Source: Paludibacteraceae bacterium (GTDB lineage: Bacteria; Bacteroidota; Bacteroidia; Bacteroidales; Paludibacteraceae). From it: 64,000 bases of DNA. Where the stretch lies: positions 1 through 64,000 of the forward strand of contig JAKSNF010000011.1 of NCBI GenBank assembly GCA_024400115.1. Reading direction: 5' to 3'. The notes beneath the pieces are model-generated. The model made no database searches and was not told where the DNA came from. It was given only the letters and a program-made list of their open reading frames with translations. The translations under genes were made by a program, and so were the position numbers. Shown in pieces: positions 2,262 through 64,000 of the stretch (the first letter of the stretch is position 1; each line of letters begins with the position of its first letter).

Positions 2262-4043
2262 ATGACTGCTATCGAAGTGCTACATAATACCTTTGGTTAC
2301 GACTCTTTCCGCACCATACAAGAGAACGTGATTGACTCCGTTCTTGCCGGTCACGACACCTTGGCACTCATGCCGACCGGTGGCGGTAAGTCGCTCTGTT
2401 TCCAAGTGCCGACTATGGTTATGGCGTCGGAGGGCAAACCGTCGTTATGTTTAGTCATCACGCCGCTGATAGCCCTTATGAAGGACCAAGTGGAGAACCT
2501 CAAAAAGCACAATATCATGGCGGCGGCTATCTACACCGGGCAGTCGTTAGACCAGCAGCAAGCGGCTTTAGATAACTGTCAGTTTGGACCTTACCATTTC
2601 CTCTACGTCTCTCCCGAGCGGTTGGAGAGTGAGGCTTTTCGTAAGCGTTTGGCACAACTGCCCGTGGGTCTGATAGCCGTTGACGAGGCACACTGTATCA
2701 GTCAGTGGGGCTACGATTTTCGTCCGTCCTATCTGCACATATCTTCTATTCGCGAGTTCTTTAACTGCCCTCTCCTTGCCCTCACCGCCACCGCGACACC
2801 CAAAGTGGTGGAGGACATCTGTGATAGGTTACAGGCAACAGGCAACAGGCAACAGGCATCCCTATCCCCCTACTCCTCTACTCCCCTACCCCCAATGCGC
2901 GTTTATGCGCAGTCTTTCGAGCGTAAGAACTTGCAATATATCGTTCGTTATACGGATAAGAAGGACGAGCAGTTGAGGCATATTCTTGATTGTGTTCCGG
3001 GTTCGGCTATTGTGTATGTGCGTAACCGCAAGCGGGCGCAAGAGCTCAGTGAGTTATTAGCCTCCTACTCTGCCGATTTCTACCATGCCGGATTGACGGC
3101 TAAGGAGCGGTCGGATAAGCAGTCGGCGTGGAAGGACAATAAGACGCGTGTTATCGTTTGTACCAACGCTTTCGGGATGGGTATAGACAAACCCGATGTG
3201 AGGCTTGTTATCCATTACGATTTGCCGGATAGTATAGAGGCTTATTTCCAAGAGGCGGGTCGTGCCGGACGAGACGGTAAGACGGCTTATGCGGTGCTTC
3301 TTTATAATCCCGAGGACAAGGTCAAGGCGCGTAAGCGCGTAGCGGATAACTACCCCACGAAGGAGTTCATTGAGGATGTCTATCATAAGACCTGCGATTT
3401 CTTCACTATTGGCGCCGGCAGCGGGTTAGGTCATTCGTTTGCGTTGCATATGGACGAACTGGCACGGGTGATGCATCTGCCTTTATTGCCTACCTATGCC
3501 GCGTTACATATCCTGTCGCAGGCGGGGTATATTGATTTCGAGGAAGACCAAGAGATGCGGGCAAGGGTACAGTTAAAGGTCACTTCTTCGCAGTGGAAGC
3601 AGTATAATCTGTCGCCCGAGGAGGCACTCGTCTTGGAGACGCTGATGCGTCGTTATACGGGTATCTTCTCCGACTTACAGTATATTGACATAGAATCCCT
3701 TCTTCCCTCTCTAAACTCTATACGGCTTGCCGATCGCGCCCCTTGGGGCAGAGAACTCTCAACTCTACACTCTTTATTGGCCGATTTAGCCGCTCGCGGT
3801 CTCCTTATTTACCTTCCGCGCACGTGTGCGTGCAGGTTCACGATGACACAAGAAAGGCAGGAAACGATATTCCTGCCTAAGCGAGTATATGAAGACCGTA
3901 AGGATCAGTATGTAGAGCGTTTGCGCGCGATGGTGGAGTACGCGGAGCAGACGCAGTTCTGTCGCAGTCAGTTATTGCTGCATTATTTCGGTCAGAGTGA
4001 TGCCCCCACTTGTGGTACGTGTGATGTCTGCCGTAGTAGGTAG
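2262..4043 (+). CDS. recQ: ATP-dependent DNA helicase RecQ with two repeat insertions
   Basis: A 593-residue SF2 helicase of 3'-5' polarity for recombination and fork repair. Visible: Walker A in LMPTGGGKSLCFQVP (near 39-53), DEAHC (Walker B), ALTATATPK, the helicase C motif QEAGRAGRDG, and the RQC zinc-binding cysteines closing in CGTCDVC at the C-terminus. No HRDC domain follows. The start is the ATG just after the promoter, which gives a normal RecQ N-terminus. Two segments are absent from ordinary RecQ: ATGNRQQASLSPYSSTPLPP after ATPKVVEDICDRLQ (2830-2894), and one between IESLL and the wHTH (3708-3776). Both are copies of dispersed DNA repeats read in frame. Both lie at domain-linker positions, so the enzyme is probably active. 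Confidence 0.93.
   Translation: MTAIEVLHNTFGYDSFRTIQENVIDSVLAGHDTLALMPTGGGKSLCFQVPTMVMASEGKPSLCLVITPLIALMKDQVENLKKHNIMAAAIYTGQSLDQQQAALDNCQFGPYHFLYVSPERLESEAFRKRLAQLPVGLIAVDEAHCISQWGYDFRPSYLHISSIREFFNCPLLALTATATPKVVEDICDRLQATGNRQQASLSPYSSTPLPPMRVYAQSFERKNLQYIVRYTDKKDEQLRHILDCVPGSAIVYVRNRKRAQELSELLASYSADFYHAGLTAKERSDKQSAWKDNKTRVIVCTNAFGMGIDKPDVRLVIHYDLPDSIEAYFQEAGRAGRDGKTAYAVLLYNPEDKVKARKRVADNYPTKEFIEDVYHKTCDFFTIGAGSGLGHSFALHMDELARVMHLPLLPTYAALHILSQAGYIDFEEDQEMRARVQLKVTSSQWKQYNLSPEEALVLETLMRRYTGIFSDLQYIDIESLLPSLNSIRLADRAPWGRELSTLHSLLADLAARGLLIYLPRTCACRFTMTQERQETIFLPKRVYEDRKDQYVERLRAMVEYAEQTQFCRSQLLLHYFGQSDAPTCGTCDVCRSR
2830..2894 (+). repeat. In-frame repeat insert in recQ (AGGCAAC run plus CCCCTAC pyrimidine element)
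   Basis: Four AGGCAAC-like heptamers are followed by a C/T-rich block of CCCTA/CTCCTCTA words. The same block recurs at 11886-11922, 40096-40120 and 42049-42081, always in the same orientation relative to the gene and always read as PY(S/P)(S/P)TPL. Confidence 0.8.
3708..3776 (-). repeat. In-frame GTTTAGAG-family repeat in recQ, antisense to the gene
   Basis: Its reverse complement matches the 3' end of rsmI (18450-18511) almost base for base, including GCGATCGGCAAGCCGTATAG. A central hairpin at 3738-3749 (GCCCCAAGGGGC on the minus strand) corresponds to GCCCTGAAGGGC in rsmI: a C-G pair here replaces a T-A pair there. Confidence 0.85.
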
Positions 4044-4045
4044 GG

Positions 4046-62544: not shown

Positions 62545-62565
62545 CCCACTTTTTATACATTAGTC

Positions 62566-64000
62566 GTGGAATATAAGTATCTAAATAGTATCAATTCTCC
62601 CAAAGACTTGAAGTCTTTGTCGGTAGATGAACTCCCTACCCTCTGTGACGAGTTGCGCGATTTCATCATCCAAGAACTCAGCCATAACCCGGGTCACCTC
62701 GGTTCCTCTTTGGGAACAATCGAACTCACGGTAGCCTTGCATTACGTTTTTGACACTCCGTACGATAAACTCGTGTGGGACGTAGGTCACCAAGCTTATG
62801 CCCATAAGATTATCACCGGTCGTCGGGAGCGTTTTCACACCAATAGGCAGTTCAAAGGGTTAGCACCCTTCCCTACTCCGGCGGAAAGCGAATACGACGC
62901 TTTCATTGCCGGACATGCCTCTAACTCTATCTCCGCTGCCCTCGGTATCGAAGTAGCAGGAGAACTGCTACAGACCGCTTCGTTGAAAGACCGCTGCGCT
63001 GGTCGCTCCGGCGACTCCGATATACCGGCTGTGCCTGAAAGAAACGACAAGAGACTCCCCTATGTGGTAGCGATTATTGGTGACGGAGCGATGACGGGCG
63101 GTTTGGCGTTTGAAGGACTGAACAACACGTCCATGGATAAGAACAATCTGCTTATTGTGCTCAATGACAACAACATGGCGATTGACCCTATCCACGGCGG
63201 ATTCACACAATACTTGGTTAACCTAACCACCTCTTCGTGCTACAACCGCGTTCGTTGGAACTTATACCAATTGGCGGTTAAGATGCACCTCATCAACGAG
63301 CGCAAGACCGATTCGCTGAGGCGGTTTAGCAATAACCTCAAGTCGATTCTGACCAAGCAACCCAGTAATATCTTCCAAGGTCTCGACTTGCGCTATTTCG
63401 GTCCTGCCAACGGGCACGACGTGCAGGGACTGGTTCGTATCCTAAACGAAATCAAGAACCACCGCGGACCGAAAGTACTGCATATCATCACCACCAAGGG
63501 GAAGGGTTATGCCCCCGCCGAACAAAACCAGACCGTTTGGCACGCCCCCGGGGAGTTTAATGTAGAGACAGGAGCAAGGAGTAAGGACAATGGACAAAAG
63601 ACAGATAGCAGCAACGATTGTCCACCTTTATGGCAGGAGGTTTTTGGCGAAACGCTATTGGAGTTAGCCAAAGAGGATCCACGCGTGGTGGGTGTCACCC
63701 CCGCTATGCCGAGCGGTTGCTCCATGACCATCATGCAGAACGAGATACCCGAGCGCGTCTTTGACGTAGGTATAGCCGAAGGACATGCCGTCACTTTCTC
63801 GGCAGGATTAGCCAAAGAGGGCGTTATCCCCTATTGCAATATCTACTCCTCTTTCCTCCAACGCGCTTATGACAATATCATCCACGATGTGGCATTACCC
63901 AAGCTGCATGTGGTTCTCTGTATTGACCGCGCCGGAATCGTAGGTAACGACGGCGCTACTCACCATGGTCTTCTCGACTTGGCGTACCTGCGTCCCGTAC
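62566..64000 (+). CDS. dxs: 1-deoxy-D-xylulose-5-phosphate synthase, C-terminal part outside the window
   Basis: 478 codons visible; the frame is open at the window edge. The start is GTG at 62566 (MEYKYLNSINSPKDLKSLSV), matching the usual Bacteroidales N-terminus; no ATG is nearby. It condenses pyruvate and glyceraldehyde 3-phosphate with thiamine diphosphate, the first step of the MEP isoprenoid pathway. Visible: LGSSLGTIELTVALHYVFD, WDVGHQAYAHKI, the cofactor motif IGDGAMTGG ... NDNNMAID, and DVGIAEGHAVTFSAGLA in the second domain. Between GIEVAGE and YVVAIIGDG about 27 extra residues (LKDRCAGRSGDSDIPAVPER among them) are a CAGCGGTC-family repeat, inverted relative to the copy in uvrB. Confidence 0.95.
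   Translation, partial: MEYKYLNSINSPKDLKSLSVDELPTLCDELRDFIIQELSHNPGHLGSSLGTIELTVALHYVFDTPYDKLVWDVGHQAYAHKIITGRRERFHTNRQFKGLAPFPTPAESEYDAFIAGHASNSISAALGIEVAGELLQTASLKDRCAGRSGDSDIPAVPERNDKRLPYVVAIIGDGAMTGGLAFEGLNNTSMDKNNLLIVLNDNNMAIDPIHGGFTQYLVNLTTSSCYNRVRWNLYQLAVKMHLINERKTDSLRRFSNNLKSILTKQPSNIFQGLDLRYFGPANGHDVQGLVRILNEIKNHRGPKVLHIITTKGKGYAPAEQNQTVWHAPGEFNVETGARSKDNGQKTDSSNDCPPLWQEVFGETLLELAKEDPRVVGVTPAMPSGCSMTIMQNEIPERVFDVGIAEGHAVTFSAGLAKEGVIPYCNIYSSFLQRAYDNIIHDVALPKLHVVLCIDRAGIVGNDGATHHGLLDLAYLRPV
62981..63046 (-). repeat. CAGCGGTC-family element inside dxs, inverted
   Basis: Its reverse complement matches uvrB 41534-41590 in order, with the hairpin GTCGC TCCG GCGAC. Both orientations are open in the reading frames used. 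Confidence 0.9.

What the first reader, a model, noticed from the sequence alone, without database searches (positions are those of the whole stretch)
2830..63046. Dispersed DNA repeats inserted in frame into many conserved enzymes
At least eight conserved genes carry extra segments encoded by repeat families that also occur outside genes: recQ (2830-2894, 3708-3776), the AraC regulator (10796-10870), dapB (11583-11646, 11885-11922), lepB (12650-12703), a glycosyltransferase (27756-27793), a PAP2 phosphatase (40606-40696), uvrB (41521-41590, 42048-42083) and dxs (62981-63046). All keep frame and sit in loops or linkers. Rickettsia palindromic elements are the known parallel; I know of no described equivalent in Bacteroidales. 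The density suggests an active or recent spreading process plus selection for tolerated sites.
Basis: partly seen in the sequence, partly recalled or inferred. Interest (0 to 1): 0.93.

Follow-up and report, generated by a model that had tools for sequence, protein, structure and literature searches.

The report
Swappable repeat inserts in bacterial enzymes
In a bacterium whose nearest named relatives are gut Bacteroidales, short repeated DNA units (mostly seven letters long) sit in frame inside dozens of genes, nearly all of known families, and near-identical versions of the same enzyme carry quite different inserts at the same spot, likely because the repeats keep being copied and exchanged by a mechanism not yet identified.

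Summary
The DNA observation holds; "extra segments" holds for most but not all genes named. The genome is 2.14 Mb; nearest named relatives are Bacteroidales. In a 447 kb sample (21%), 171 segments are built of 13-mers shared by at least 5 loci; 46 lie well inside genes (43 after removing 3 false calls; 36 genes), against 0 of 13 in a smaller E. coli sample. Random placement would give about 128, so copies are depleted in genes yet abundant. Solved UvrB, RecQ and Dxs, and shorter DapB and LepB relatives, lack the residues; the glycosyltransferase segment and dapB site 2 are not longer than in solved homologues.

The strongest result is turnover: the same loop carries unrelated inserts, or none, in near-identical orthologues. 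UvrB P0001/P0003 differ at 3 of 647 other residues but have different inserts at site 2. Across the genus the loops stay while the 7-nt units differ by genome.

Unit lengths not divisible by 3 give the same cyclic peptide in any frame. No reverse transcriptase, Y1 transposase or Ku was found, so spread by host template switching plus strain exchange is inferred. Closest known: Rickettsia palindromic elements and bacterial heptamer repeats. New variant of a known kind.

The parts
2831..2896 (+). recQ insert 1: four ACAGGCA heptamers followed by CCCCTACT octamers
   Evidence: shorter in solved RecQ; replaced by other sequence in orthologues P0122-P0126
3708..3776 (+). recQ insert 2: heptamers with a non-tandem module (CTATACGGCTTGCCGATCGCGCCC...) also at 18448-18511 on the other strand
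   Evidence: varies in orthologues
10795..10870 (+). AraC-type regulator: 21-nt unit made of three AAGGATA-like heptamers
   Evidence: not tested against relatives
11583..11646 (+). dapB insert 1: AGTTTAG-type heptamers plus a further module
   Evidence: varies by species and between close orthologues; shorter in solved 3qy9
11885..11922 (+). dapB site 2: CCCTACTC octamers
   Evidence: other inserts in close orthologues; solved 3qy9 is longer here
12385..12444 (+). intergenic GAAACAA/GAAACGA heptamer array just upstream of lepB
12649..12704 (+). lepB insert: AGTGGAG and AGGAAAA heptamers
   Evidence: relatives shorter or with other segments in the same loop
13824..13997 (+). array from the lepB stop: 37-nt unit, then GAAACAA/GAAACGA heptamers (12.7 copies)
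14404..14466 (+). AGTTTAG-type repeat overlapping the 3' end of ORF 13869-14432
15502..15581 (+). AGTTTAG-type repeat overlapping the 3' end of ORF 14475-15509
18447..18599 (+). AGTTTAG-type repeat overlapping the 3' end of ORF 17759-18508
23226..23287 (-). CTTTAAA heptamer array at the 3' end of minus-strand ORF 23286-24254, overlapping the start of ORF 22272-23264
27756..27793 (+). CCAAACA heptamers inside the glycosyltransferase; not extra length
29917..29982 (+). intergenic TCCTACAGCGCAGCGG 16-nt repeats between ORFs 29242-29916 and 29977-32064
40594..40698 (+). PAP2-type phosphatase: 16/17-nt CAGCG repeats
   Evidence: very weak alignment to LpxE suggests about 30 extra residues
41519..41590 (+). 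uvrB insert 1: 16-nt family plus a module shared with dxs on the other strand
   Evidence: replaced or shorter in orthologues
42048..42088 (+). uvrB insert 2: CCCTACTC octamers
   Evidence: four insert types and empty sites among close orthologues
52843..52884 (+). intergenic CACTAAA heptamer array (6 copies)
58856..58924 (-). TTTAGAG-type heptamers between two minus-strand ORFs, reaching the 3' end of ORF 58916-59926
59940..60027 (-). CTCTAAA heptamer array with the AAACTAGTCGGCTTC module, reaching the 3' end of minus-strand ORF 60024-61310
62981..63046 (+). dxs insert: 16-nt family module in reverse orientation to uvrB insert 1
   Evidence: (I8)

Best explanation
Short tandem DNA repeats, mostly of 7-nt units, occur between genes and in frame inside conserved enzymes, where near-identical orthologues carry different inserts or none at the same spot; they are likely copied to new sites by host DNA synthesis switching templates and likely exchanged between strains, and are predicted to persist only where the protein tolerates a loop. 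Shown: the repeats, their dispersal, their in-frame position, the re-use of the same few sites by unrelated inserts, the genome-specific choice of unit, and depletion within genes. Shown by arithmetic: a unit whose length is not a multiple of 3 is read as the same cyclic peptide in all three frames, so the phase in which an array lands does not change its peptide; only its total length and its stop codons matter. Inferred: template switching or templated repair as the copying step (no reverse transcriptase, Y1 transposase or Ku was found), purifying selection as the filter, and exchange between strains as one source of swapping. Not known: why 7 nt, and whether any insert serves the cell.
For: Dispersal: 107 exact double-heptamer matches, 0 control; 37 separate places in the 21% sample, control 0; non-tandem modules recur at 24, 5 and 4 places, controls 2, 0, 0. 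Period: 74 arrays of period 7, 24 of 14 and 18 of 21, against 0, 1 and 0 in the shuffle. Genes: 46 of 171 segments well inside genes; 3 were judged by eye to be promoter-like motifs in doubtful gene calls, leaving 43 in 36 genes; 29 of 30 genes submitted have a Pfam family. Filter: random placement expects 128 inside genes, minimum 113 in 200 trials. Site re-use: UvrB P0001/P0003 differ at 3 of 647 residues outside the inserts, none within 50 residues of site 2, yet have different inserts there. At backbone identity of 97% or more, insert identity is below 50% in 23 of 54 site-pairs for UvrB and 46 of 81 for DapB. DapB sites assort separately: in 57 of 253 pairs one site is at least 85% identical and another below 45%. 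UvrB loop 2: 18 residues in all 35 readable of 56 lower-identity loci; longer in 18 of 44 readable of 54 higher-identity loci, 3 of them by only 2-4 residues (the two collections behind the 54 share some sequences). Genome-specific units: GTTTAGA 107 here and 0 in G047, where GAATTAAG reaches 71; 2 of the latter here. Enzymes: no PF00078, PF01797 or PF02735 match in the 98.95% complete genome.
Against: The copying step has no direct evidence. The close orthologues are proteins from public assemblies without their DNA: insert edges and silent changes were not seen, their repeat families are read from peptides, they are not proven to be one species, and repeat misassembly cannot be excluded for any one of them. 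At backbone identity of 97% or more many inserts are also stable (90% or more identical in 29 of 54 and 22 of 81 site-pairs). An identical octamer insert in P0001 and P0007 (86% backbone) could mean exchange or old shared variation. dapB site 2 and the glycosyltransferase segment are not longer than in solved homologues, so those loops may be naturally long. The 7-nt period is weak in G011 and G014. The octamer family in the sample is less clear of its control (13 places, control 3) and so is AAAGGAY (10, control 3). Repeat segments in genes show no special openness of other frames (72 of 165, 0.44, against 0.46 for random genic windows), so there is no sign of units chosen for coding.
Confidence: 0.55

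Rival explanations
1. Ordinary homologous recombination: a few repeat-bearing loop alleles arose long ago and are shuffled between strains and species, with little new insertion today.
For: A limited set of alleles recurs in different backbones: DapB site 2 HSLPPYSSTPLPP and LNPSLKGQDLQ types; UvrB octamer allele in P0001 and P0007. A competence-family gene (PF03772) is present.
Against: The P0001/P0003 swap carries no residue change within 50 residues. It does not explain the same unit at 37 separate places in a fifth of one genome, nor different units per genome.
Confidence: 0.25
2. A mobile-element system (MITE or REP type) moved by a transposase inserts these elements.
For: Composite modules recur at unrelated sites; the E. 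coli repeats found by the same test (REP, name recalled) are an intergenic counterpart.
Against: No Y1 transposase or reverse transcriptase in the genome. No arms of 8 nt or more in 3 of 4 insert regions. Units and families are many and unrelated. DDE transposases were not searched for.
Confidence: 0.1
3. Local slippage only: each array grew where it stands from a chance duplication, with polymerase slippage favouring 7 nt.
For: P0004 and P0005 UvrB differ at site 2 by one 7-residue (21-nt) unit; 7 nt is the commonest unit in most genomes of the 2007 survey cited in PMC4679880.
Against: Independent local growth would not give the same unit and the same non-tandem modules at many loci, nor replace one insert by an unrelated one in near-identical proteins.
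Confidence: 0.05
4. The inserts are functional: variable loops or DNA signals kept for regulation or adaptation.
For: The same loops are used across the genus; heptamer repeats elsewhere are proposed to regulate (PMC4679880, PMC4692102).
Against: No common function is apparent among host genes; empty sites exist in close orthologues; depletion in genes.
Confidence: 0.05

Closest known systems
Rickettsia palindromic elements (RPE; Wolbachia WPE)
   Same: Families of small repeats inserted in frame into unrelated genes without breaking them (PMC10969869 passages). Orthologues can carry different RPE groups at the same gene, and modelled inserts lie in solvent-exposed areas (PMC3767692 passages).
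   Different: RPEs are palindromic units of about 100-150 bp. Here they are tandem arrays of 7, 8 or 16 nt plus short modules, without long inverted repeats in 3 of 4 regions tested, outside Rickettsiales, and different between near-identical orthologues rather than between named species.
Heptamer repeats of bacteria: TAACTGA (Beggiatoaceae), GGGNATC (Xanthomonas, Nostoc), Calothrix heptamers, GGACCGG in Geobacter metallireducens
   Same: Dispersed arrays of a 7-nt unit at many loci with no known spreading mechanism (PMC4679880 abstract, two sections and passages; PMC4692102 and PMC2700814 passages). The Geobacter element (49 places) lies within as well as between genes.
   Different: In Beggiatoaceae and Xanthomonas/Nostoc they are mostly intergenic, and in the Beggiatoaceae the ones in ORFs are mainly at protein ends. 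Here many families coexist, and many arrays sit in the middle of conserved enzymes and change between close orthologues.
REP sequences of E. coli (name recalled)
   Same: Short dispersed repeats
   Different: 13 of 13 intergenic in the same test; Y1 transposase family absent here.

Membership tests
Rickettsia palindromic elements | in-frame insertion in conserved protein genes | tested here: met
Rickettsia palindromic elements | palindromic unit of about 100-150 bp | tested here: not met
   tandem 7/8/16-nt arrays; no arms of 8 nt or more in 3 of 4 insert regions
Rickettsia palindromic elements | inserts at the protein surface | tested here: inconclusive
   DapB model: pLDDT below 50 at 102-117; UvrB model unusable
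Dispersed heptamer repeats (STRR label recalled; LSSR as cited in PMC4679880) | tandem arrays of a 7-nt unit at many dispersed loci | tested here: met
Dispersed heptamer repeats (STRR label recalled; LSSR as cited in PMC4679880) | over-represented outside genes | tested here: met
   86 of 171 segments intergenic, 27 straddling, 12 near gene ends, 46 well inside against 128 expected
REP elements moved by Y1 transposase | resident Y1 transposase (PF01797) | tested here: not met
   control rings in 5 of 14 genomes
Retroelement-copied repeats | resident reverse transcriptase (PF00078) | tested here: not met
   control rings in 3 of 14 genomes
MITE | terminal inverted repeats and target duplications | tested here: inconclusive
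   for inverted repeats only; target duplications need empty-site DNA of close strains, which these tools did not give

The most novel reading that the evidence does not exclude
Fixed loops in housekeeping enzymes of this Bacteroidales genus work as slots: unrelated repeat cassettes are written into, deleted from and swapped at the same few codons faster than the rest of the protein changes, by a copying process that needs no transposase. Units of 7, 8, 11 or 16 nt succeed because, not being multiples of 3, they give one and the same peptide in every frame.
Probability: 0.3. Interest if true: 0.88.

Novelty: new variant of a known kind. Interest (0 to 1): 0.74.

Why it matters
In-frame spread of selfish repeats through enzymes is best known from Rickettsia. 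Here empty, filled and differently filled versions of the same loop exist in close orthologues, in one case in proteins differing at 3 of 647 other residues, so insertion, loss and exchange could be watched in action and the copying mechanism tested. It also offers a large natural experiment on where enzymes tolerate new peptide. If the genus is typical, many database proteins of gut Bacteroidales would carry repeat-derived segments that alignments and structure predictions should treat with care.

Tried and rejected
Structure of UvrB: mean pLDDT 55.8, not used; no fold search was run. Reverse transcriptase, Y1 transposase and Ku in the own genome: none. Special openness of repeat segments in other frames: not seen. 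Placement near promoters or terminators: repeats occur in 3 of 19 convergent, 16 of 27 divergent and 61 of 131 tandem gaps of 30 nt or more, no simple rule. Paper searches (listings with abstract starts) found no description of such inserts inside Bacteroidales enzymes; most subscription papers are not in that library. Chance, and purely local low complexity, rejected.

Rows dropped. UvrB table: 19 proteins chosen from 120 listed (P0002, an internally duplicated protein, passed over), P0010 dropped, 18 used. DapB: 25 chosen of 120 listed, P0259 and P0264 dropped, 23 used. RecQ: 6 of 120. UvrB loop lengths: 79 of 110 loci readable by my search pattern. DapB loops in genus: 11 and 5 of 30 loci readable. 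Dxs: 23 of 30. LepB output was cut in the middle. Of 36 insert-bearing genes, 30 were submitted to Pfam; two were left out because they cross fetched pieces and four (recQ, dapB, dxs, AraC-type) because they were already named. The 3 false calls among the 46 were judged by eye.

Recalled, from no call: the names LepB, AraC-type, RsmI-like, IleRS-like, MutS2-like and REP, and the STRR label. That the genome is Bacteroidales rests on its nearest named UvrB relatives (at most 78% identical). Gene calls in the sample come from my own simple gene finder, not a published one.
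Full report
What was checked. The window is G000:C3:1-64000 of a 2,142,803-base genome in 60 contigs, 98.95% complete. The nearest named relatives by UvrB are gut Bacteroidales MAGs, several labelled Paludibacteraceae, at most 78% identical. The units are mainly 7 nt (AGTTTAG, GAAACAA, ACAGGCA, AAGGATA, CCAAACA, CACTAAA), with 8-nt (CCCTACTC) and 16-nt (TCCTACAGCGCAGCGG) families and short non-tandem modules that travel with them.

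More than chance. GTTTAGAGTTTAGAG has 107 exact matches in the genome (overlapping matches counted apart) and none for the reversed control. In a 447,086-nt sample (window plus 383,086 nt fetched, 21% of the genome) there are 272 tandem arrays against 16 in a Markov shuffle; period 7 has 74 against 0, 14 has 24 against 1, 21 has 18 against 0. Segments of 20 nt or more built of 13-mers present at 5 or more loci number 171: 86 intergenic, 46 at least 60 nt inside a gene, 12 inside near an end, 27 straddling an end. Three of the 46 look by eye like promoter motifs in doubtful gene calls, leaving 43 in 36 genes. On 200 kb, with the threshold set at 4 loci, the count is 47 segments with 17 inside genes, against 13 segments, all intergenic, in 200 kb of E. 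coli K-12, and 0 in a shuffle. Random placement of the 171 would put 128 inside genes on average (minimum 113 of 200 trials), so copies in genes are depleted but far from absent. Of 18 overlaps with a gene's 3' end, 13 hold the stop codon inside the repeat.

Host genes. 30 of the 36 genes were submitted to Pfam and 29 have a family, among them a class I tRNA synthetase, UvrA, a MutS-V/Smr protein, glycogen synthase and debranching enzyme, GH31, GH94 and GH115 enzymes, TrmO, M3, M16 and S66 peptidases and a competence-family protein. The remaining six are recQ, dapB, dxs and the AraC-type gene, already named, and two that cross fetched pieces.

Are they insertions? Solved UvrB 2fdc has no counterpart of 13 residues at site 2 and is shorter at site 1. 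E. coli RecQ 1oyw is about 17 residues shorter at site 1. E. coli Dxs 2o1s has 7 residues where this protein has 33. Solved DapB 3qy9 is shorter at site 1 but longer at site 2; within the clade, site 2 ranges from 9 residues (P0261) to 29 (P0256) by my boundaries. A very weak LpxE alignment suggests about 30 extra residues in the PAP2 protein. The glycosyltransferase segment is not longer than in 2jjm, so there a repeat has taken the place of a linker. UvrB loop 2 is 18 residues in all 35 readable loci of the lower-identity set (56 loci), but longer in 18 of 44 readable loci of the higher-identity sets (54 loci, with some sequences present in both collections, and 3 of the 18 longer by only 2-4 residues).

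Site re-use and turnover. At UvrB site 2, P0001 has the octamer peptide, P0003 a peptide of the 16-nt family, P0004 and P0005 a 7-residue-period peptide differing by one unit, P0006 another, and P0008, P0009, P0012-P0015 and P0017-P0020 are empty (10 of 18). P0001 and P0003 differ at 3 of 647 residues outside the inserts (positions 25, 187, 342), none within 50 residues of site 2. Among pairs with backbone identity of 97% or more, insert identity is below 50% in 23 of 54 site-pairs for UvrB and 46 of 81 for DapB; in the same class it is 90% or more in 29 and 22, so stable inserts exist too. RecQ, in a small set of 6, has no pair that close; at 93-97% backbone identity 9 of 10 site-pairs are below 50%. 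DapB has three such loops, and its alleles assort separately: 57 of 253 pairs have one site at least 85% identical and another below 45%.

Genus-wide picture. In other species the same DapB, LepB and Dxs loops carry other heptamer arrays, palindrome-like sequences (by eye), or little. GTTTAGA double heptamers occur in 114 of 178 genus genomes (107 matches here, 49 in G053, 0 in G047), GAATTAAG in 49 of 178 (71 in G047, 2 here). The reversed control of the first pattern, GAGATTT, is itself abundant in some genomes (29 in G034, 23 in G318), where GTTTAGA is rare (5 and 0). In 200 family genomes, 29 hold the first pattern, from 7 of 33 genera, with 188 matches in one genome of another genus while its two sampled congeners have 0. 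Samples of 36-60 kb from seven genus genomes all show arrays above shuffle (15 to 36 against 0 to 4), but the share of period 7 varies and is low in G011 and G014.

How it most likely works. Because 7, 8, 11 and 16 are not multiples of 3, every frame of an array reads the same cyclic set of codons; an array is therefore one peptide whatever its phase, and only total length and stops decide whether the gene survives. Dispersal needs copying between unrelated sites. The genome has no reverse transcriptase, Y1 transposase or Ku match, which leaves host DNA synthesis (template switching or templated repair) as the likely copier, with exchange between strains adding to the swapping. DDE transposases were not searched for. 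These steps are inferred.

What is known. Rickettsia palindromic elements insert in frame in many enzymes (PMC10969869, passages), and orthologues can carry different groups at the same gene; hot spots or a common origin were both discussed (PMC3767692, passages). Heptamer repeats are reported from Beggiatoaceae, Cyanobacteria and five Bacteroidetes (PMC4679880, abstract, sections 12 and 15, passages), from Xanthomonas and Nostoc (PMC4692102, passages) and, within and between genes, from Geobacter metallireducens (PMC2700814, passages). Mrazek 2007 was seen only as cited there. Repeats of constant size but variable sequence are described in Bacillus at 20-21 and 52 nt (PMC8161180, passages). 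A 2025 survey notes high short-repeat density in Bacteroidota genes, with trinucleotide units enriched across the compartments studied (PMC12699852, passages). What appears new is the combination: tandem heptamers inside many enzymes, and different inserts at the same loop in near-identical proteins.

Noticed in passing
1-393: A 69-nt tandem repeat at the window's left end (AAAGCCCC...CCAATCGTNGTGACCGAAT), a period divisible by 3, unlike the dispersed families.
   Followed up: no
1692-1862 and 47781-48216: Pairs of 67-98 nt inverted copies (79-85% complementary) about 46 kb apart, plus a direct copy at 47961-48066; nature not determined.
   Followed up: no
46238-46274 and 62117-62153: A palindromic repeat (CATCGCAACCCC..GGGGTTGCGATG) at 4 places in the sample, none in genes.
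   Followed up: partly
2177-2258, 7257-7297, 10045-10078, 55284-55338 and others: Repeated TGCAAAGGTA...TTTTTTTT...TGCAAAT stretches; they look like the Bacteroidetes promoter type (recalled) and gave 3 false calls in the repeat census.
   Followed up: partly
17329-17580: 9-, 24- and 18-nt tandem repeats in ORF 17191-17832, periods divisible by 3, unlike the dispersed families.
   Followed up: no
G000:C3:64268-64327 (beyond the window; gene 62542-64617): The dxs gene carries a second repeat segment just beyond the window's right end.
   Followed up: partly
G113: One genome of another genus has 188 GTTTAGAGTTTAGAG matches while its two sampled congeners have none: an apparent separate burst.
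   Followed up: no
P0002 and P0105: Two UvrB homologues of 1129 and 875 residues contain a large internal duplication of the protein itself; may be assembly errors.
   Followed up: no
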